Notes: generated by a model not told the origin, from the sequence alone. Positions 36,156-48,436 are shown, counted from the stretch's first letter. The stretch: 64,000 nt of DNA from Methylocystis sp. (GCA_002929055.1 PERY01000016.1:1-64000), one strand, 5' to 3'. Translations and numbers: made by a program.

Positions 36156-36327
36156 GGGCGGGGCTCCGCGCGCGCAAGAGAGCAAGGGGATTGTTCGATT
36201 ACGATCATGGTGAATCACGCCTAACTTGACCTTAAACAAGGCGCGGGTGAAACAAGATTGTTATCAACACCCGCGATTCCTCCATGCGTGCAGAACGCGG
36301 CTTCCAAAATTCGGAGACGTTCGGTCG

Positions 36328-38103
36328 ATGGCGTACTCTTCAACTACAATTGCCCGTGTAATCAGCCAAATCAATCGAAGCTATTTCTTGCCTGCCATCC
36401 AGCGGCCCTATGTTTGGCAGCCAGAGCAAATCATAGCCCTCTTCGATTCACTCATGAAAGGCTATCCCATAAGTTCCTTCCTGTTCTGGGAAGTGGCGCC
36501 CGATCGGCGGCACGACTGGGATATCTATAAGTTCATGGAAAATTTCCGACATGGAGACGTTCATAATGAGATGGCCGAAACGGACGGAAGGGATGTCATT
36601 CTTGTCCTCGATGGTCAGCAGCGACTGACCTCGTTCGTCATCGGCCTGCAGGGGAGCTATACGATTAGGCCAAAGTATGCCAGGCGCGGCAGTCCTGATA
36701 ACTGGGTTCGTCAGCGCCTCTACATAGATTTGCTCAAAATTAAAGATGACATTGAGAACGCCGTAGTTGATGAAGCCGAGCTCGGTGTTACGTATGGTTT
36801 TAAGTTCGCGCCGCACCTGCCAATGAACGGTCCTGCGCAGATGTGGTTTAAGGTGGGCCGTATATTGGACTGCACCAGTGACGATGCCTTCGACAAGCTT
36901 CGCAACGAACTTCTAGACCTGCTCCCTGATAGCTCAACGCGCGCTCAGGGACGGATACTTCAGGATAATCTGAGTCGGCTCTATCGGGTTGTCTGGAAGG
37001 ATGAGGTCGTATCGTATTTTACGGAAACTGATCAATCCTATGACCGAGTTCTTGATATATTTATCCGAGCGAATGACGGTGGAACAAAGCTAAGTAAGTC
37101 CGACCTGCTGTTGTCAATGATCACCTCGAAATGGCAGGGAGTGAGTGCGCGCGAAGAGATTTATAATTTTGTTGAGCATCTCAACTCAGGGCTTGAAGGC
37201 CGAAACGGTGTTGACAAAGATTTGATTATGAAGGCGTGTCTAGTACTAAGCGATCTCGATCAAACTTATAAAGTAGGTAACTTTACTTCCAGAAATCTCT
37301 CCATAATTGAGGGCCATTGGCCTCGCATAAAGTGCTCGCTGGAAGCGACCTTTCGACTGGTCAATCGCTTGGGAATTGATCAGGAGACTCTCACTTCAGG
37401 AAACGCGATCCTGCCAATAGCGTACTATCTCTTCAAGACTGAGCAGGGTGACTTGTCCGGTTCGACGAGTGAGAACGCAAAGAACACATTGCTGATCCAG
37501 CGATGGCTCATCGGGAGCCTTCTAAACGGCGTCTTCGGCGGAACCTCCGATGCGACGCTAGGCGCGGCACGCTCGATCATAAAAGATAACCTCAGAGCCA
37601 ACTCCGACTTTCCATACCGCGACCTTGTCGACGGCCTTGCCTTGAAGGGTCGTCTCACTGAGTTCAATGAGAGTAATATGGAGAGTTTTTTTGAGATTGG
37701 CTACGGAAAGCGTGTCTGTTTTCTAGCTCTGTCTTTGCTTTACGACACCACAAACTGGGGCCTTACGAGTTACCATATCGATCACATAATCCCTAGATCG
37801 CTAGCGGACCGAAAAGCGTTGATGGCGGCGAATGTCTCAGAAAGTTTGATTCAGCGAATTGAGAATGCGGTGAATCGCCTAGGTAACCTACAGTTGCTCC
37901 AAGGCTATGAGAACTTAGAAAAGAACAACAGGCCATTTTCCGAGTGGATAAAAACGCGGGACAAAGATTTTTTGAGGAGGCATCTAATCCCAGAGCGGGA
38001 GGATCTATATTCGGTGACAGAGCTGGCGGCATTTGTAGCGGAAAGAGAAAAGCTTATCGCGCAAAGGCTACGACAAAGCGTCTTCGCCAGAGCGATGGTT
38101 TAG
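36328..38103 (+). CDS. DUF262/HNH (GmrSD-like) putative defence nuclease
   Basis: A 591-residue protein with an N-terminal DUF262 ParB-like domain (PAIQRPYVW, LVLDGQQRLTS, FIRANDGGTKLSKSDLL) and a C-terminal DUF1524-type HNH nuclease motif (YHIDHIIPRS, then RLGNLQLLQGYENLEKNNR). This is the GmrSD architecture, where DUF262 hydrolyses or senses nucleotides and the HNH part cuts modified DNA; related DUF262 proteins act in several anti-phage systems. ATG 36328 has GGAGA upstream. The gene is clearly AT-richer than everything around it, with frequent ATA, TTA and AGA codons, and has no partner gene: a transferred single-gene module. Confidence 0.85.
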   Translation: MAYSSTTIARVISQINRSYFLPAIQRPYVWQPEQIIALFDSLMKGYPISSFLFWEVAPDRRHDWDIYKFMENFRHGDVHNEMAETDGRDVILVLDGQQRLTSFVIGLQGSYTIRPKYARRGSPDNWVRQRLYIDLLKIKDDIENAVVDEAELGVTYGFKFAPHLPMNGPAQMWFKVGRILDCTSDDAFDKLRNELLDLLPDSSTRAQGRILQDNLSRLYRVVWKDEVVSYFTETDQSYDRVLDIFIRANDGGTKLSKSDLLLSMITSKWQGVSAREEIYNFVEHLNSGLEGRNGVDKDLIMKACLVLSDLDQTYKVGNFTSRNLSIIEGHWPRIKCSLEATFRLVNRLGIDQETLTSGNAILPIAYYLFKTEQGDLSGSTSENAKNTLLIQRWLIGSLLNGVFGGTSDATLGAARSIIKDNLRANSDFPYRDLVDGLALKGRLTEFNESNMESFFEIGYGKRVCFLALSLLYDTTNWGLTSYHIDHIIPRSLADRKALMAANVSESLIQRIENAVNRLGNLQLLQGYENLEKNNRPFSEWIKTRDKDFLRRHLIPEREDLYSVTELAAFVAEREKLIAQRLRQSVFARAMV

Positions 38104-41736: not shown

Positions 41737-42426
41737 GTGTCCGTTTTCGACGGCATTCCATTTTTTGCGGGGCTGGACCCCATCCGCGCCGAGAGCTTTG
41801 CGCGTCAATGCGCGCGCAAGCGCTACGCAGAAGAGGAACTTGTTCTCGACTTCGACGACCACTCGACCGACGTTTACTTCATCGTCAGCGGCGACGTGCG
41901 GGTGCTGATCCGCACCGCCGCCGGCAAGGAGATGATCTTCGGCGATTTCGGGCCGGGGAAGTTCTTCGGCGAGATGGCGGCCATCGACGGCGCCAAGCGC
42001 TCCGCCAACGTCACCGCCCTGACCAATGCGGAACTCCTGATCGTCCCGCCGGGGGCCTTTCGGGAGATCGTGCTTCATGCGCCCGACATCGCCGAGAGGC
42101 TGCTGCGACTGCTGACCGCGCGCGTGCGCGAACTCAACATCCGCCTCTTCGAGCGTTCCGTGCTCGATCTGCGCCATCGCCTCTATTCTGAGCTTTTGCG
42201 CATGTCGGCGCCCCGCAAGGGACACGATGGTCAGGCCATTGTCTCGCCGCCGCCCTTCCAGCACGATCTCGCTTCCCGCATCGGCTGCCGGCGCGAGCAG
42301 GTCAGCCGCGAGCTTGGCGCGATGGTGGAGGAGGGCCTGGCCGAAAAAATCCGCGGCGGCCTTGTCCTGCCGCAGCCGGGCGTGCTCCAGAAGCGTGTCC
42401 GGGACGCAATGAACGAGGCGGAATGA
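41737..42426 (+). CDS. Crp/Fnr family transcriptional regulator with cAMP-type binding cassette
   Basis: A 229-residue regulator. The N-terminal cyclic-nucleotide-binding domain holds the phosphate-binding cassette FFGEMAAIDGAKRSANV, with the Gly-Glu and Arg-Ser that contact cAMP in E. coli CRP. The C-terminal winged helix has PFQHDLASRIGCRREQVSRELGAM, close to the CRP recognition helix. There are no Fnr-type cysteines. Start is GTG 41737, preceded by GGAGAAG. It lies 1.4 kb upstream of the CHASE2-cyclase cassette on the same strand, so it is a natural candidate receptor for that cyclase, although this is only positional evidence. Confidence 0.88.
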   Translation: MSVFDGIPFFAGLDPIRAESFARQCARKRYAEEELVLDFDDHSTDVYFIVSGDVRVLIRTAAGKEMIFGDFGPGKFFGEMAAIDGAKRSANVTALTNAELLIVPPGAFREIVLHAPDIAERLLRLLTARVRELNIRLFERSVLDLRHRLYSELLRMSAPRKGHDGQAIVSPPPFQHDLASRIGCRREQVSRELGAMVEEGLAEKIRGGLVLPQPGVLQKRVRDAMNEAE

Positions 42427-42530
42427 CGCGTGCTTCAGCGCACAAACGCTGAGCCGGCGATCTCCTAGGTTGATGACGCTCGATGAAGGGCTCTTGGGTC
42501 CGACGAGCGTCAGCGACGGAGGAGAGGCAG

Positions 42531-42938
42531 ATGAACCCTCGATTGACGCCGATTTTCAGATGCGCCGAACTCGCGGGCCTCGCGGCCCATGAGATCGTCC
42601 TTGGCGTGAGCCCCGGCAAGCAACATGAGCGCATGCTAGCAAGGTACCGGCGTGCGCGATCCCAGGCTCTGACACGCGCCCGGATAGTCGCAGATATGCG
42701 GGCCGCCATGCGCAGAGGCGCCGCGGGCCGCGCGGCGGATCTCCTGATCGTGCTTCGCCAGCTTCTGGCGGAGGAGGGCGCCACGACGCGCGTTGGCGGC
42801 CCCTGCGCACGACGGCGGCGCGTTTCAGTTCGCCTTCCCGGCCTTCCGACTCTCGACGCGACGCCCGCGCGTGGGGTGGAAGCTCAGGTGATCGCGTGGC
42901 GCAGTTCTCCCGATAATCGCTGTGAATCTGTTGTTTAG
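42531..42938 (+). CDS. Hypothetical protein
   Basis: A 135-residue ORF beginning MNPRLTPIFRCAELAGLAAH, preceded by an excellent GGAGGAGAGG ribosome site, which is the main reason to believe it. The first 80 residues are helical and arginine-rich (HERMLARYRRARSQALTRAR, LLIVLRQLLAEEG). The end (VRLPGLPTLDATPARG onward) looks less protein-like, so the true stop may be affected by a frameshift. No family recognised. It lies between the Crp-type regulator and the FecR/CHASE2 cassette. Confidence 0.5.
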   Translation: MNPRLTPIFRCAELAGLAAHEIVLGVSPGKQHERMLARYRRARSQALTRARIVADMRAAMRRGAAGRAADLLIVLRQLLAEEGATTRVGGPCARRRRVSVRLPGLPTLDATPARGVEAQVIAWRSSPDNRCESVV

Positions 42939-43140: not shown

Positions 43141-44502
43141 TTGTTTGGATTTTGCGAGAAGCGGGCGATTGCGCTAGGCGCCATTCTTTTTATGTCGGCG
43201 ATAGGGACGTCTTACGGTCAGGATGTGCTGACCCAGGACATCGAAGCCGAAAAGTCTCAGCTGGCGACGCATATCCAGCTGCATCCCGAGGATTATGAGT
43301 CGACATACCGCTATGTGCGGGTGACGACGGAGCTGCGCGATTACGAAGCCGGGATCGGCGCGCTCGAGCGGCTGCTGATGTTCAATCCCAAGCTGACGCG
43401 CGCCCGCAAGGAACTGGGTTTCCTTTATGCGCGGCTCGGCGCCTGGGAGATGGCGGCACAGCATCTGCGCGCCGTAAAGGCGGCGGGCGATCTTGATCCG
43501 GTGCAGATGGCGCAGGTCGACGCGCAACTGCCCGATATCGAGAAGCGCACCCAGACGAACCGTCTCAACGTGCGCATGCATGTCGGCCTGCGCGCGCAGT
43601 CCAACGCCAATTATTTTCCCGCCAACAACCTCTTCCAGGTCGGCGGCATCGGGCTCGCGTCACCCAACGGAAAGCAGGGCGACGTCAACTCGTTTCAGTT
43701 GATCCAGGCCGCGCATGATTACGAGTTCGGCAATCAGCGCGGCGACCGGCTCGAGACGCGCCTCACGGGCTATGCGACGCAGCAGTTCAATCTGCCCCAA
43801 TATAGCGTCGCGTTGTTTGCGGGCACGATCGGGCCGCGTTTCTTCGTTCCGCAGACCATGTTCCACAGCCTTTCCGTGCGTCCCTATCTGACGGGCGCGG
43901 TGTCGATGCTCGGCTCGAATAATTATCTCAACACCGGCGGCGCGGGCGCCAGCGTCCGGGCGGAATTCGCTCCGGAAATCTGGCTCGAGCCGGGGGCCGA
44001 GTGGCGCAGCCTCTGGGTCGATCCCGGCAGAGGTTTTTTCGGGGTGTCGCCCTACGCCACGCTCTCGACCCTTGCGACGGGCGATGCGGTGACGGGCTAT
44101 CTCAGCGGCTCCTACCGCCTGCTCGACGGCGTGCGGCTCGACGGCCGCGTCGCCTATTCGCGGGCCAACGCCGGCTTCGCAGCGCAGAGTTCGGATCAGG
44201 TCGACGTGCAGGCGATGCTGCGGCTGGAAGTCGATCCTCCGCTCCCGATCATCGCGCGCCGCTGGACGATTGCGCCCTATGCACGATTCACCAATCTCAC
44301 TTTTGACAAAGCTAATCCGCTGGTGAATCCGTTCGTCGCGCGCCGGGACGTGGCATGGACCTACGGCATGATGCTCGATGCGCCGGTCACGGATATATTC
44401 GGCTTCGCAGGCAATCTGGAGTTCGCGCGCAACGACTCCAATCTGCAGAACTTCAAGATGCAGAACGTGTCTGTCTCTTTCGGCCCCACGGCTAAGTTTT
44501 AA
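43141..44502 (+). CDS. TPR plus outer-membrane beta-barrel protein (Slam-like layout)
   Basis: A 453-residue exported protein: signal peptide (AIALGAILFMSAIGTSYG), a TPR-like helical region at about 45-125 (ETTELR-type repeats; AGIGALERLLMFNP, RARKELGFLYARLGAWEMA), then about 300 residues of alternating beta strands ending in aromatic-rich FGPTAKF, typical of an outer-membrane barrel. Size and order resemble Slam/DUF560 proteins, but the match is by layout only. Start is TTG 43141 with AGGGGCAGG just upstream; no ATG would preserve the signal peptide. It is followed after 14 bases by the FecR gene. Confidence 0.75.
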   Translation: MFGFCEKRAIALGAILFMSAIGTSYGQDVLTQDIEAEKSQLATHIQLHPEDYESTYRYVRVTTELRDYEAGIGALERLLMFNPKLTRARKELGFLYARLGAWEMAAQHLRAVKAAGDLDPVQMAQVDAQLPDIEKRTQTNRLNVRMHVGLRAQSNANYFPANNLFQVGGIGLASPNGKQGDVNSFQLIQAAHDYEFGNQRGDRLETRLTGYATQQFNLPQYSVALFAGTIGPRFFVPQTMFHSLSVRPYLTGAVSMLGSNNYLNTGGAGASVRAEFAPEIWLEPGAEWRSLWVDPGRGFFGVSPYATLSTLATGDAVTGYLSGSYRLLDGVRLDGRVAYSRANAGFAAQSSDQVDVQAMLRLEVDPPLPIIARRWTIAPYARFTNLTFDKANPLVNPFVARRDVAWTYGMMLDAPVTDIFGFAGNLEFARNDSNLQNFKMQNVSVSFGPTAKF

Positions 44503-44516
44503 AGGACGCGAGCGCC

Positions 44517-45392
44517 ATGATGACCAGAATTTCCGCTCTCGCCCTCGCGGCCGCCTTGGTTTTGTCGCCCCTTGCCGCGCAGGCCGAGAAGGTCGGCAAT
44601 GTCGGCGCCGTAAATGTCTCGGCGCATGGCACGCCGCCCGGCGGCGCAAAGCGCGCGCTTTCCGTGGGCCTTGGCGTCGAAAAACGCGAGCGCGTTGAAA
44701 CGACCGCAGACGGCAGCGCGCAGATCGTCTTCAACGACACGTCGACCATGACAGTTGGGCGCAACAGCTCGGTCGTCATCGACGACTTCGTCTACCGTGG
44801 CGGCGGCGGCGCTCAGGGCGTCTCGGTCGCCAAGGGCGTGCTGCGCTTCGTGGGCGGCGGCGTGAGCCATAGCTCGGGCGCCAATCTCAAGACGCCCACA
44901 GCCTCGATCGGAGTCCGCGGCGGCGCCGTGCTGGTGCGCGTCGGCGGTCCGTGCGGCACGCTCGTCGTGCATCAATATGGCGTGGCCGAAGTCTCTGGCG
45001 CCGGCGGCGGCTCCGAGACGCTGAACCGCGCGGGCTTTGGCGTCTGCGTGACGGAGAGCGGCGTGTCGGAGCCCTTCCGCGTGCCGCCGGAGACGATAGC
45101 GGCGCTGATCGCGCAGCTTGAAAGCCAGGCCGGCCAGTCGGGCGGCGCCAGGAGGAAGCCGACCAATCAGGAGGCGAATCTGGGCCTCGGCAACGACCGA
45201 CCGCCCTATGTCGATCCGCCGCCCGGCCTCGACGCGCTCATTCCGGTCTGGGCGGGCAATGCGCTCGTGCAGAGCCAGGCCAATTCACAGAACCAGCCGT
45301 CGCCTCCGGCGACCGAGGAGCGACACAGCGAACACTATCACTACTATTATAACGGCTATGGCCCCACCGGCGGCTACGGCTACTACGATTGA
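44517..45392 (+). CDS. Periplasmic FecR-domain protein
   Basis: A 291-residue protein with a signal peptide (ISALALAAALVLSPLAAQA) and a FecR domain at about residues 55-150: VGLGVEKRERVETTADGSA, VFNDTSTMTVGRNSSVVID, KGVLRFVGGG and LKTPTASIGVRGG. The C-terminal third is Pro/Gln/Asn-rich and ends in a Tyr/Gly/His-rich tail (HYHYYYNGYGPTGGYGYYD). There is no N-terminal anti-sigma segment, so it is not a sigma-factor regulator of the FecI/FecR kind. Position between a barrel protein and a CHASE2 sensor suggests a periplasmic link or ligand. Confidence 0.85.
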   Translation: MMTRISALALAAALVLSPLAAQAEKVGNVGAVNVSAHGTPPGGAKRALSVGLGVEKRERVETTADGSAQIVFNDTSTMTVGRNSSVVIDDFVYRGGGGAQGVSVAKGVLRFVGGGVSHSSGANLKTPTASIGVRGGAVLVRVGGPCGTLVVHQYGVAEVSGAGGGSETLNRAGFGVCVTESGVSEPFRVPPETIAALIAQLESQAGQSGGARRKPTNQEANLGLGNDRPPYVDPPPGLDALIPVWAGNALVQSQANSQNQPSPPATEERHSEHYHYYYNGYGPTGGYGYYD

Positions 45393-45468
45393 TCGCCTGC
45401 AAGGCGCGCCGTTGCGCGTTCCGACGACGGCACAGTGATCGCTGCCGCGCGCAGGCGCAGCTCAACGG

Positions 45469-47685
45469 ATGAAGAGTCGCTGGCGCATCCTGCTGCTCGC
45501 GACCCTCGCGGCGGCTGCACTGGTCCTGCCCTGGGGATTTCTCCAGCCGCGCGCGCTCGAGGATTTGCGTAACGTCGTCTTCGACAATTTCCAGCGCCTG
45601 TCGCCGCGCGCCTATGATCCCGAGACGCCGACGCGCGTCGTGGGCATAGACGAGGAAAGTCTCAAAACCTACGGGCAATGGCCCTGGCCGCGAACGCGCA
45701 TCGCCGAACTCGTCAGCCGGCTGAAGGAGCTGGGCGCCGCTGCGATCGCCTTCGACTTCATGTTCGCCGAGGCCGACCGCGCCGGGACGCGCACGCTTCT
45801 CGAAACCGCGACCGACGCCAAGCTGCGCGCCGAACTCGCCCGCCTCCTCGCCAGGGCTCCCGACAGCGATACGATCTTCGCCGGAGCCATCGCACAGGCG
45901 CCGGTCGTTCTCGGCGCGACGCTCGCAACCGAGGGCGCGAAGGCTTTCCCGGCGAAAGCCGGTTTCGTGACGGCGGGCGACGATCCCGCGGCCTTCATCT
46001 TGTCGTTCCCGGCCGTGGTGCTGCCCGTGCCGATTTTTCTCAAGGATGCACAGGGCCTCGGCGCGACGAACTGGGCGCCGGACCGCGATCTTGTCGTGCG
46101 GCGCGTGCCGCTGCTGACACGCGTCGGGCTATCGCTCGCCCCCTCGCTCGCGCTGGAAGCGTTGCGCGTGGCTCAAGGCGCCTCGAGCATCGTCATCCGT
46201 TCCTCCAACGCCAGCGGTGAGACGGCCTATGGCGCTCAGACCGGCGTAAACGCGGTCAAGGTTGGCGGATTCGAGATCAAGACGGGATCGTCTGCGGATG
46301 TGCGCCCGCGATACAGTTACACCGATCCCGCGCGCGATATTTCCGCCAAGGCGGTGCTGCAGGGGCAGACGCCGCGCGGCGAGATCGAGGGCCGGATCAT
46401 TTTCGTCGGCGCGCTGGCCGTTGGCCTTGGCGATGTACGGGCGACGCCGCTCGAGCCGATTGTCCCGGGCGTCGAGGTGCATGCGCAGATCGTCGAGTCG
46501 TTGACTTCGGGCGCGCTCCTGTCCCGGCCGGACTGGGCCGTCGGGCTGGAGCTCCTGGTCGCGCTCGTCGCCTTCGTGCTGACGATGCCGCTTCTCTTCA
46601 TCGCGCCGCCCTTCGTCTCGGCGGCTTTCGCGCCCCTCGCGGTGGCCGTGCTGTTTGGCGGATCCTTCTACCTTTTCGAGCGACAGGGACTGTTGCTCGA
46701 TCCCGCCTATCCCAGCCTTGTCGTCATCGGCTCCTACATTGTCGGGGCCGTCACGCTCTGGCGCGCCGAAACGCTTGCGCGTCGTCAGGTGCGCCGCGCC
46801 TTCGGCAAGTTCGTTGCGCCCGCGGTCGTCGACCGGCTTGCGGAGCATCCGGAGCGTCTGGTGCTCGGCGGCGAGACGCGCGAACTCACCGTGCTCTTTT
46901 CGGATCTTCGCAACTTCTCAGGCATTTCCGAGGGCATGAGCGCGCGTGAACTCACGCAGTTCATGAATGCTTATCTGACGCCCATGACCGACGCGATCCT
47001 CGAATGCGACGGCACGGTCGACAAATACATGGGCGACGCCATTCTCGCCTTCTGGAACGCGCCGCTCAACATCGCCGATCATCCACGCAAGGCGGTGCAG
47101 GCGGCGCTCGTCATGCGCGCCGCGCTGTTGACGTTCAACGAGCAGCGCGCGCAGGCGGCGCAGGCGGCGGGGCGTCCGCATATAGAGGCGGCGATGGGGC
47201 TGGGCCTGAACCTCGGTCCCTGCAACGTGGGCAACATGGGGTCGATCCGCCGCTTCGACTATTCCATCCTCGGCGACAATGTGAATCTGGCCTCGCGCCT
47301 CGAGGGCGCGAGCAAGGCGTTCGCGACGGATATCATTGCTTCGAAGGCAGTTCGCGACGCCGCGCCAGACATGGCCTGGCTCAGTTTAGGGCGAATCGTG
47401 GTGGTCGGGCGCACCGAGCCGACCCGGATTTTTGCGTTGGCCGGAGACAAGGCCTACAGCCTGTCGGATGAGTATGTGCGTTGGCGCACAGCGCATGAAG
47501 CCATGCTGGCTGAATATGAGGCGGCCCGATTCGAAGACGCCGCTGCGCGCGCTTCCAGCCTCGCGGGGATACTCCCCGGCGCGTGGCCTGCGCTCTATGT
47601 GACGTTGGAGAAACGATATTCGGCGCTGGCCCGGGAAGGCTTGCAACAAGGCTGGTCGTCTATATGGAATCTCACCGGTAAATGA
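45469..47685 (+). CDS. CHASE2-domain adenylate/guanylate cyclase (class III)
   Basis: A 738-residue membrane sensor: helix at about 6-25, a periplasmic CHASE2 domain (about 30-335; VVGIDEESLKTYGQWPWPR, AIAFDFMFAEADR), three membrane helices at about 345-435, then a class III cyclase domain (about 470-655). Catalytic residues are intact: metal-binding Asp in VLFSDLRNFSGISE and KYMGDAILAFW, purine-selecting Lys in VDKYMGD, and the Asn/Arg of LGDNVNLASRLEG. This pattern predicts ATP as substrate. It closes the TPR-barrel/FecR/cyclase row; all three run in the same direction with gaps of 14 and 76 bases. cAMP made here could act on the nearby Crp-type regulator. Confidence 0.92.
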   Translation: MKSRWRILLLATLAAAALVLPWGFLQPRALEDLRNVVFDNFQRLSPRAYDPETPTRVVGIDEESLKTYGQWPWPRTRIAELVSRLKELGAAAIAFDFMFAEADRAGTRTLLETATDAKLRAELARLLARAPDSDTIFAGAIAQAPVVLGATLATEGAKAFPAKAGFVTAGDDPAAFILSFPAVVLPVPIFLKDAQGLGATNWAPDRDLVVRRVPLLTRVGLSLAPSLALEALRVAQGASSIVIRSSNASGETAYGAQTGVNAVKVGGFEIKTGSSADVRPRYSYTDPARDISAKAVLQGQTPRGEIEGRIIFVGALAVGLGDVRATPLEPIVPGVEVHAQIVESLTSGALLSRPDWAVGLELLVALVAFVLTMPLLFIAPPFVSAAFAPLAVAVLFGGSFYLFERQGLLLDPAYPSLVVIGSYIVGAVTLWRAETLARRQVRRAFGKFVAPAVVDRLAEHPERLVLGGETRELTVLFSDLRNFSGISEGMSARELTQFMNAYLTPMTDAILECDGTVDKYMGDAILAFWNAPLNIADHPRKAVQAALVMRAALLTFNEQRAQAAQAAGRPHIEAAMGLGLNLGPCNVGNMGSIRRFDYSILGDNVNLASRLEGASKAFATDIIASKAVRDAAPDMAWLSLGRIVVVGRTEPTRIFALAGDKAYSLSDEYVRWRTAHEAMLAEYEAARFEDAAARASSLAGILPGAWPALYVTLEKRYSALAREGLQQGWSSIWNLTGK

Positions 47686-47749: not shown

Positions 47750-48436
47750 ATGACCGAAGCCATCGTAAACCAATATTGGACCCTCCTTGCTGACCGGCAC
47801 GACGCCGACGCGTTTCAGACGCTGGACGCGGCCTATCGCGAGCCGCAGCGCGCCTATCACGCCTGGGGCCATATCGTCGATCTGCTGACGAAACTCGATG
47901 CGCTGGGGAGCCTTGCAACTCGCCCAGACCTCGTCGCGGCAGCGATTTTCTGGCACGACTCGGTTTATCTCACGCGCGATCCGGACGGGCGCCCGCGCAC
48001 CGATCCTGAAAACGTGCGCGCGAGCGCGGCGCTCTTCGAACGCCATTCCCGTTTCGACGCGGTGGAAGCGCAGTCCATCCACGACATGATCATGGCGACC
48101 GCGAGCCACATGAAGGCGAAGGCGACCACGGAACATTACCCGGGCTTTGCGCGCGATCTCGATTTCTTCCTCGACCTCGACCTGTCGTCGCTCGCGGCGT
48201 CATGGGCGATCTTCGAACGAAATCTCGACGACATCCATTTCGAATATGGCTGGGTTCCCGAACGCGCCTTCTACCTGGGCCGCGTGCAGATGCTCGAGAG
48301 CTTTCTTGGCGGCGGGGAGTCGCTCTACCGGCTTCCCGAAACGCGCGCGCTCTGGCTCGAGCCTGCGCTTGCAAATCTGCGCCGGGCGCAAGCCGAACTG
48401 CGTGAGCGGCTCGCCCGGCCTGCTTCCTCGGCCTGA
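47750..48436 (+). CDS. HD-family predicted metal-dependent hydrolase (COG4339-like)
   Basis: A 228-residue protein with HD-type metal motifs: RAYHAWGHIVDLL, AAIFWHDSVYL (His-Asp) and QSIHDMIMATASHM. These are typical of the COG4339 family of predicted metal-dependent HD phosphohydrolases. It starts 65 bases after the cyclase gene on the same strand, so cotranscription is possible, and a nucleotide phosphodiesterase or nucleotidase role would make sense, but nothing in the sequence proves it. ATG 47750 follows CAGCGC without a strong ribosome site. Confidence 0.78.
   Translation: MTEAIVNQYWTLLADRHDADAFQTLDAAYREPQRAYHAWGHIVDLLTKLDALGSLATRPDLVAAAIFWHDSVYLTRDPDGRPRTDPENVRASAALFERHSRFDAVEAQSIHDMIMATASHMKAKATTEHYPGFARDLDFFLDLDLSSLAASWAIFERNLDDIHFEYGWVPERAFYLGRVQMLESFLGGGESLYRLPETRALWLEPALANLRRAQAELRERLARPASSA

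What the first reader, a model, noticed from the sequence alone, without database searches (positions are those of the whole stretch)
43141..47685. TPR/beta-barrel, FecR-domain protein and CHASE2-adenylate cyclase as one envelope-spanning cassette
Three consecutive same-strand genes encode an exported TPR-barrel protein, a periplasmic FecR-domain protein without a sigma-factor partner, and an inner-membrane CHASE2 cyclase with all catalytic residues. Together they reach from outer membrane to cytoplasm. FecR next to CHASE2 cyclases is known to recur, but the biological role is not established, and the barrel partner suggests a signal (or the FecR protein itself) is passed or exported at the outer membrane.
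Basis: partly seen in the sequence, partly recalled or inferred. Interest (0 to 1): 0.75.

Follow-up and report, generated by a model that had tools for sequence, protein, structure and literature searches.

The report
Envelope-spanning FecR/CHASE2 cAMP signalling cassette
A methane-eating bacterium carries a three-gene unit (a protein-export-type pore in the outer membrane, a partner protein between the membranes, and an inner-membrane cAMP-making enzyme), and relatives suggest the pore descends from a surface-protein export system that was coupled to cAMP signalling.

Summary
In detail: three intact same-strand genes in a Methylocystis genome (43141-44502 TPR/beta-barrel; 44517-45392 FecR-domain protein with signal peptide; 45469-47685 CHASE2 adenylate cyclase with a complete active site). 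(1) The conserved core is the barrel-FecR pair (directly adjacent in 71 of 80 named relatives and 25 of 35 class-wide loci); the cyclase is a frequent but optional third partner (35/80, 16/35), in changing gene order. (2) The barrel is homologous to Slam/type XI secretion (T11SS) outer-membrane proteins (profile-profile 99.8%, E 1e-27), not to S. meliloti NsrA. (3) In many relatives the FecR protein ends in an fHbp/TbpB/NHBA-type beta-barrel, the mark of T11SS cargo; the window's clade has a short FecR without it. (4) A functional analogue is known: NsrA-CyaK in S. meliloti (FecR-TPR-barrel fusion plus CHASE2 cyclase). Best reading: a transenvelope relay in which a T11SS-derived barrel holds or exports a FecR protein whose periplasmic state is read by CHASE2 and turned into cAMP. 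Shown: homology, linkage, topology signals. Inferred: ligand, contacts, cAMP response.

The parts
43141..44502 (+). TPR/beta-barrel outer-membrane protein, homologous to Slam/T11SS OMPs (signal peptide about 1-30, TPR about 40-135, barrel about 141-453, C-terminal Phe)
44517..45392 (+). periplasmic FecR-domain protein, short form (PF04773 at residues 59-144), with a low-complexity His/Tyr/Gly tail and no T11SS cargo barrel
45469..47685 (+). CHASE2 class III adenylate cyclase with complete catalytic residues
47750..48436 (+). conserved downstream gene in Methylocystis (228 aa, HD-phosphohydrolase-like by eye, no Pfam or PDB match); possible turnover enzyme, not shown to belong
41737..42426 (+). 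Crp-family regulator (CRP-like, FGEM...RSA cyclic-nucleotide pocket motif); neighbour and plausible cAMP reader, but a core gene kept in genomes without the cassette

Best explanation
A transenvelope cAMP-signalling relay. A T11SS/Slam-derived TPR-barrel sits in the outer membrane and binds (in relatives probably exports or threads) its dedicated FecR-domain partner. The FecR domain remains in, or passes through, the periplasm, where its state depends on what the barrel or the exposed part meets at the surface. The CHASE2 domain of the inner-membrane cyclase reads this, and the cyclase makes cAMP, probably for a Crp-type regulator. Shown here: gene linkage, homology of the barrel to T11SS OMPs, cargo-type C-terminal barrels on many partner FecR proteins, signal peptide and membrane segments, intact active site. 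Inferred: barrel-FecR and FecR-CHASE2 contact, direction of signalling, ligand, cAMP output. In the window's clade, whose FecR lacks the cargo domain, the barrel more likely serves as receptor or anchor than as exporter.
For: Barrel directly followed by FecR in 71/80 named relatives and adjacent in 25/35 class-wide loci taken mostly from different families; CHASE2 cyclase near 16/35, downstream, upstream, divergent or convergent, in neighbourhoods unlike the Methylocystis one; at least 15 changes of cyclase linkage on the barrel tree. Negative control: 0 of 5 loci that match canonical Slam better have FecR or cyclase. From the cyclase side, 8 of 40 fetched CHASE2-cyclase loci have this barrel (one a weak match) and 9 more have FecR alone. 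Barrel vs SlipAM profiles: 99.8%, E 9.7e-28 over 373 columns; barrel part alone 98.1%, TPR part 98.7%; crossed-domain controls 0.1%. Long FecR proteins: FHBP_C in 14/20, TbpB_B_D in 10/20, solved NHBA/GNA2132 E 2e-5, cargo of true Slam 93.7%. Analogues: NsrA is FecR+TPR+barrel in one chain beside cyaK, and NsrA mediates signal perception for CHASE2 cyclases (PMC13001267; PMC7529298); Campylobacterota cluster (PMC9239204). Active site matches CyaK.
Against: No interaction, localisation or cAMP data. Genome G002 keeps the cyclase without barrel or FecR at the locus, and Nitrobacter keeps barrel and cyclase without an adjacent FecR, so no pair is strictly obligatory. Afipia and others have barrel and FecR without a nearby cyclase. 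The window FecR lacks the cargo barrel and no other such protein was found in 15 Methylocystis genomes, so secretion there has no visible substrate signal. The window barrel does not itself reach PF04575's cut-off. The Crp gene is not co-inherited. NsrA's barrel is unrelated, so the analogy is of function, not descent.
Confidence: 0.5

Rival explanations
1. Secretion with feedback: the barrel is a true T11SS-type exporter, FecR its cargo, and the cyclase senses unsecreted FecR in the periplasm, so cAMP reports export status rather than an outside ligand.
For: Long FecR proteins carry T11SS cargo-type C-terminal barrels; in the control genomes the domain is found at the linked FecR gene only; many genomes have the barrel-FecR pair without a cyclase.
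Against: The window's clade (support 100, all short FecR) lacks the cargo domain; no secretion data; does not explain barrel + cyclase without FecR in Nitrobacter.
Confidence: 0.22
2. Co-location without signalling contact: barrel-FecR is an envelope or surface module, and the cyclase is only co-regulated or linked by its own FecR-type partners.
For: Cyclase optional in about half of the loci; cyclase kept alone in G002; other CHASE2 cyclases lie near FecR proteins without this barrel, including giant RTX/cadherin adhesins.
Against: Repeated re-association in different gene orders; barrel + cyclase kept without FecR; genetic link of OM barrel and CHASE2 cyclase in the NsrA-CyaK analogue (PMC13001267).
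Confidence: 0.2
3. The TPR-barrel is an ordinary porin or polysaccharide exporter (PgaA-like) unrelated to FecR function.
For: PF04575 has included PgaA-like 16-stranded proteins (PMC8406197); TPR + barrel is a common layout.
Against: Full-length profile match to Slam-type proteins, cargo-type partners in relatives, no exopolysaccharide genes in the window cassette.
Confidence: 0.05

Closest known systems
NsrA-CyaK (with CyaD1, CyaD2, Clr) of Sinorhizobium meliloti
   Same: FecR domain, TPR and outer-membrane barrel encoded directly beside a CHASE2 adenylate cyclase with the same active-site residues; FecR domains homologous (hhalign 94.6%)
   Different: NsrA is one 1190-aa chain with a large barrel unrelated to the window's (hhalign 0.5%); here FecR and a Slam-type barrel are separate proteins; the organism is a methanotroph, not a legume symbiont
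Campylobacterota CHASE2-cyclase/PDE/FecR/TPR clusters (PMC9239204)
   Different: no T11SS relation seen in the passages read; a phosphodiesterase is not established here
Type XI secretion / Slam (DUF560, PF04575) with TbpB/fHbp/hemophilin-type cargo
   Same: TPR + barrel OMP beside its cargo gene; long FecR partners end in the cargo barrel; SPI-type soluble cargo is known
   Different: N-terminal effector is a FecR domain, and the locus often holds a CHASE2 cyclase; the window's FecR has no cargo barrel; FecR and cyclases are not mentioned in the main texts of the two T11SS surveys searched
BiofilmReg operon of Burkholderia (LysM-FecR + CHASE2 histidine kinase; PMC5192318)
   Same: periplasmic FecR protein paired with a CHASE2 sensor
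   Different: histidine-kinase output, no outer-membrane barrel
FecA/FecR/FecI surface signalling
   Same: FecR domain relaying an outer-membrane state
   Different: no sigma factor, no TonB-dependent receptor, FecR here has no inner-membrane anchor

Membership tests
Slam / T11SS outer-membrane protein (PF04575) | Sec signal, periplasmic TPR domain and C-terminal barrel, homologous over full length | tested here: met
   hhalign 99.8%, E 9.7e-28, 373 columns; barrel and TPR each on their own
Slam / T11SS outer-membrane protein (PF04575) | window protein reaches the curated PF04575 cut-off | tested here: not met
   no SlipAM hit for the window protein; 2 of 12 homologues hit, one homologue (G038) over cut-off
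Slam / T11SS outer-membrane protein (PF04575) | cognate neighbour with C-terminal 8-stranded cargo barrel | tested here: not met
   absent from the window FecR and from 15 Methylocystis genomes, controls 6/6; met in many relatives
Slam / T11SS outer-membrane protein (PF04575) | 14-stranded barrel fold | not testable with these tools
   structure prediction switched off
Slam / T11SS outer-membrane protein (PF04575) | protein translocation activity | not testable with these tools
   needs an experiment
NsrA-CyaK type system | CHASE2 adenylate cyclase with intact catalytic residues next to FecR and OM-barrel coding sequence | tested here: met
NsrA-CyaK type system | OM barrel homologous to NsrA, FecR and barrel in one chain | tested here: not met
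   hhalign 0.5%; separate genes
NsrA-CyaK type system | OM protein needed for ligand-induced cAMP | not testable with these tools
   needs an experiment
FecI/FecR sigma regulation | ECF sigma partner | tested here: not met
   no sigma domain in the neighbouring genes tested

The most novel reading that the evidence does not exclude
T11SS-family barrels have been drawn into second-messenger signalling: the exported or tethered cargo is itself the sensor, with a FecR domain at its periplasmic end and a cargo barrel (or, in the window's clade, a low-complexity tail) at the other, read by a CHASE2 cyclase. CHASE2/FecR would then be a general reader of surface-protein status, whether delivered by a T11SS-type barrel, by an RTX route, or fused to a barrel as in NsrA.
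Probability: 0.35. Interest if true: 0.82.

Novelty: new variant of a known kind. Interest (0 to 1): 0.6.

Why it matters
What CHASE2 domains sense, and why FecR domains so often occur without sigma factors, are open. This links both to a secretion-type barrel across Alphaproteobacteria and predicts a defined, testable chain (barrel, FecR, CHASE2, cAMP) in easily grown species such as Rhodopseudomonas. It also gives T11SS a candidate cargo type (FecR proteins) and a signalling context not mentioned in the two T11SS surveys searched here.

Tried and rejected
AlphaFold jobs were interrupted and then switched off, so barrel fold and FecR-CHASE2 contacts are untested. NsrA-type barrel homology rejected. 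Crp regulator as a co-inherited part rejected: kept in 30 of 31 genus genomes, including several without the cassette. FecR remnant in Nitrobacter between barrel and cyclase: none found. Unlinked T11SS cargo in Methylocystis: none; the Pfam-only searches had no working control, the profile search did. A shared docking motif after the FecR domain: conserved within the short forms, not found in the long ones. Crp-type site upstream: only a weak palindrome. Genus-level synteny was not counted as independent linkage.

Full report
Observation. The window lies in a Methylocystis genome (nearest named relatives are Methylocystis species). Three intact genes on the + strand, 43141-44502, 44517-45392 and 45469-47685, are separated by 14 and 76 nt. 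The first has TPRs (TPR_9 E 2.6e-8), the second a FecR domain (E 4.8e-11), the third CHASE2 (E 8.3e-54) and a class III cyclase domain (E 1.6e-13). The FecR protein has one N-terminal hydrophobic stretch ending AQA|E and no other membrane segment; the cyclase has a segment at 5-26 and a cluster at 354-403 around CHASE2. Its active site (D479, K519, D523, S599, N606, R610) matches S. meliloti CyaK.

Linkage. Within the genus the order is vertical synteny and the neighbours (exonuclease-like gene, Crp, the 228-aa gene) are conserved too, so this alone says little. Congeneric genome G002 keeps Crp, cyclase and the 228-aa gene at the locus but lacks barrel and FecR there. A scan of 84,980 species genomes with the barrel profile returned 80 loci, mostly Hyphomicrobiales: in 71 the next gene on the same strand is a FecR protein, usually 10-13 nt away. 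A CHASE2 cyclase is near in 35 (Methylocystis, Methylosinus, Rhodopseudomonas, Nitrobacter, Tardiphaga, Microvirga, a Bradyrhizobium), absent in Afipia and others. In a class-wide sample 76 of 385 genomes have the barrel. Of 40 neighbourhoods fetched, 35 hold this barrel type; 25 have FecR adjacent on the same strand and 16 a CHASE2 cyclase, with varying order. With about 4 FecR genes per 3,500 genes assumed, 25 of 35 by chance is below 1e-60 (a rough figure that ignores relatedness). The five loci that match canonical Slam better have neither FecR nor cyclase. On the barrel tree (FastTree, long branches present) cyclase linkage changes at least 15 times and FecR linkage at least 11. From the cyclase side, 8 of 40 fetched CHASE2-cyclase loci carry this barrel (one of them a weak match) and 9 more carry FecR without it. 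Plasmid records show the same trio in Shinella and Paracoccus aminophilus, and the pair alone in Azospirillum thermophilum.

What the barrel is. The window protein alone misses PF04575 (SlipAM), but 2 of 12 homologues hit it and one in G038 passes the cut-off. A profile of the FecR-linked barrels finds seven true SlipAM proteins at E 1e-21 to 3e-4, and profile-profile comparison gives 99.8%, E 9.7e-28 over 373 columns, with barrel and TPR parts each significant on their own and crossed-domain controls at 0.1%. It is therefore a relative of T11SS/Slam OMPs. It is not filed as a T11SS: activity and fold are untested and the window's partner lacks the cargo domain.

What the FecR partner is. In many relatives the FecR protein is 560-1620 aa and ends in a beta-barrel domain: FHBP_C in 14/20 and TbpB_B_D in 10/20 at E 0.1 or better, some over the curated cut-offs, solved NHBA/GNA2132 at E 2e-5, and 93.7% against cargo next to true Slam genes. 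That domain marks T11SS cargo (PMC8406197; PMC12282271; PMC5449769). The window's clade (45 barrels, support 100) has only short FecR proteins, with variable low-complexity tails, and 15 Methylocystis genomes hold no such cargo domain elsewhere while 6 of 6 control genomes with it ring. So export of FecR is a fair inference for the long forms and open for the window.

Known analogues. S. meliloti NsrA (FecR, TPRs and barrel in one 1190-aa chain) is encoded directly upstream of cyaK; cAMP synthesis by the CHASE2 cyclases increases on sensing plant uL2 through NsrA (PMC13001267; PMC7529298; the primary 2018 paper was not held). NsrA's barrel is unrelated to ours (0.5%), its FecR domain is related (94.6%). 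Campylobacterota have CHASE2 cyclase/PDE/FecR/TPR clusters (PMC9239204), and Burkholderia pairs LysM-FecR with a CHASE2 histidine kinase (PMC5192318). FecR proteins near other CHASE2 cyclases include giant cadherin/RTX proteins. The common thread is a FecR domain near the N-terminus of an envelope or surface protein and a CHASE2 sensor in the inner membrane.

Mechanism. Most likely (0.5): barrel holds or exports FecR; FecR state is read by CHASE2; cAMP is the output. Rivals: export feedback (0.22), co-location only (0.2), ordinary porin or polysaccharide exporter (0.05). The Crp gene upstream has a cyclic-nucleotide pocket motif (FGEM...RSA) but is a core gene of the genus, so its role is only plausible.

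Limits. No structures or complexes could be predicted. Gene linkage does not prove contact. The named-relative sample is biased to close homologues of the barrel, and some FecR or cargo domains may have diverged beyond the profiles used. Literature was limited to open-access papers.

Noticed in passing
L267:3227-7318 (-), L278:3092-7354 (-), L285:12421-16683 (-), L286:1401-4406 (+): Giant surface-type proteins (FecR near the N-terminus plus Big_9/cadherin/Calx-beta/VWA and RTX repeats) lie near other CHASE2 cyclases, suggesting FecR as the periplasmic end of surface adhesins read by CHASE2.
   Followed up: partly
window 42531-42938 (+): Small ORF (135 aa) between Crp and barrel, aligned and conserved in 8 Methylocystis genomes, no Pfam match.
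   Followed up: partly
window 42429-42445: Palindrome just after the Crp stop codon (CGTGC-TTCA-GCGCACA; TGTGCGTTCTCGCACA in relatives), a possible hairpin or Crp-type site.
   Followed up: no
window 47750-48436 (+): 228-aa protein conserved after the cyclase in Methylocystis and Methylosinus, HD-hydrolase-like by eye, no Pfam or PDB match; candidate phosphodiesterase.
   Followed up: partly
window 36226-38103 (+): GmrSD-type (PF03235/PF07510), PADLOC HEC-05 candidate defence gene in a low-G+C (0.505) stretch, perhaps a recent arrival.
   Followed up: partly
L137, L149, L152, L153 (Nitrobacter), L151: Barrel and CHASE2 cyclase adjacent with no FecR gene or remnant between them.
   Followed up: partly
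L057 and L058 (G007): In one congeneric genome the cassette is split: barrel with two FecR copies at one locus, cyclase with two other FecR genes 1.7 Mb away.
   Followed up: no
L078-L091 FecR C-termini: FecR proteins vary from 282 to 439 aa within Methylocystis through Gly/His-rich tails, a fast-changing low-complexity end.
   Followed up: no
L063 / L120 (G017): The barrel gene reads as three overlapping frames in one Methylocystis MAG: frameshifts or assembly errors.
   Followed up: no
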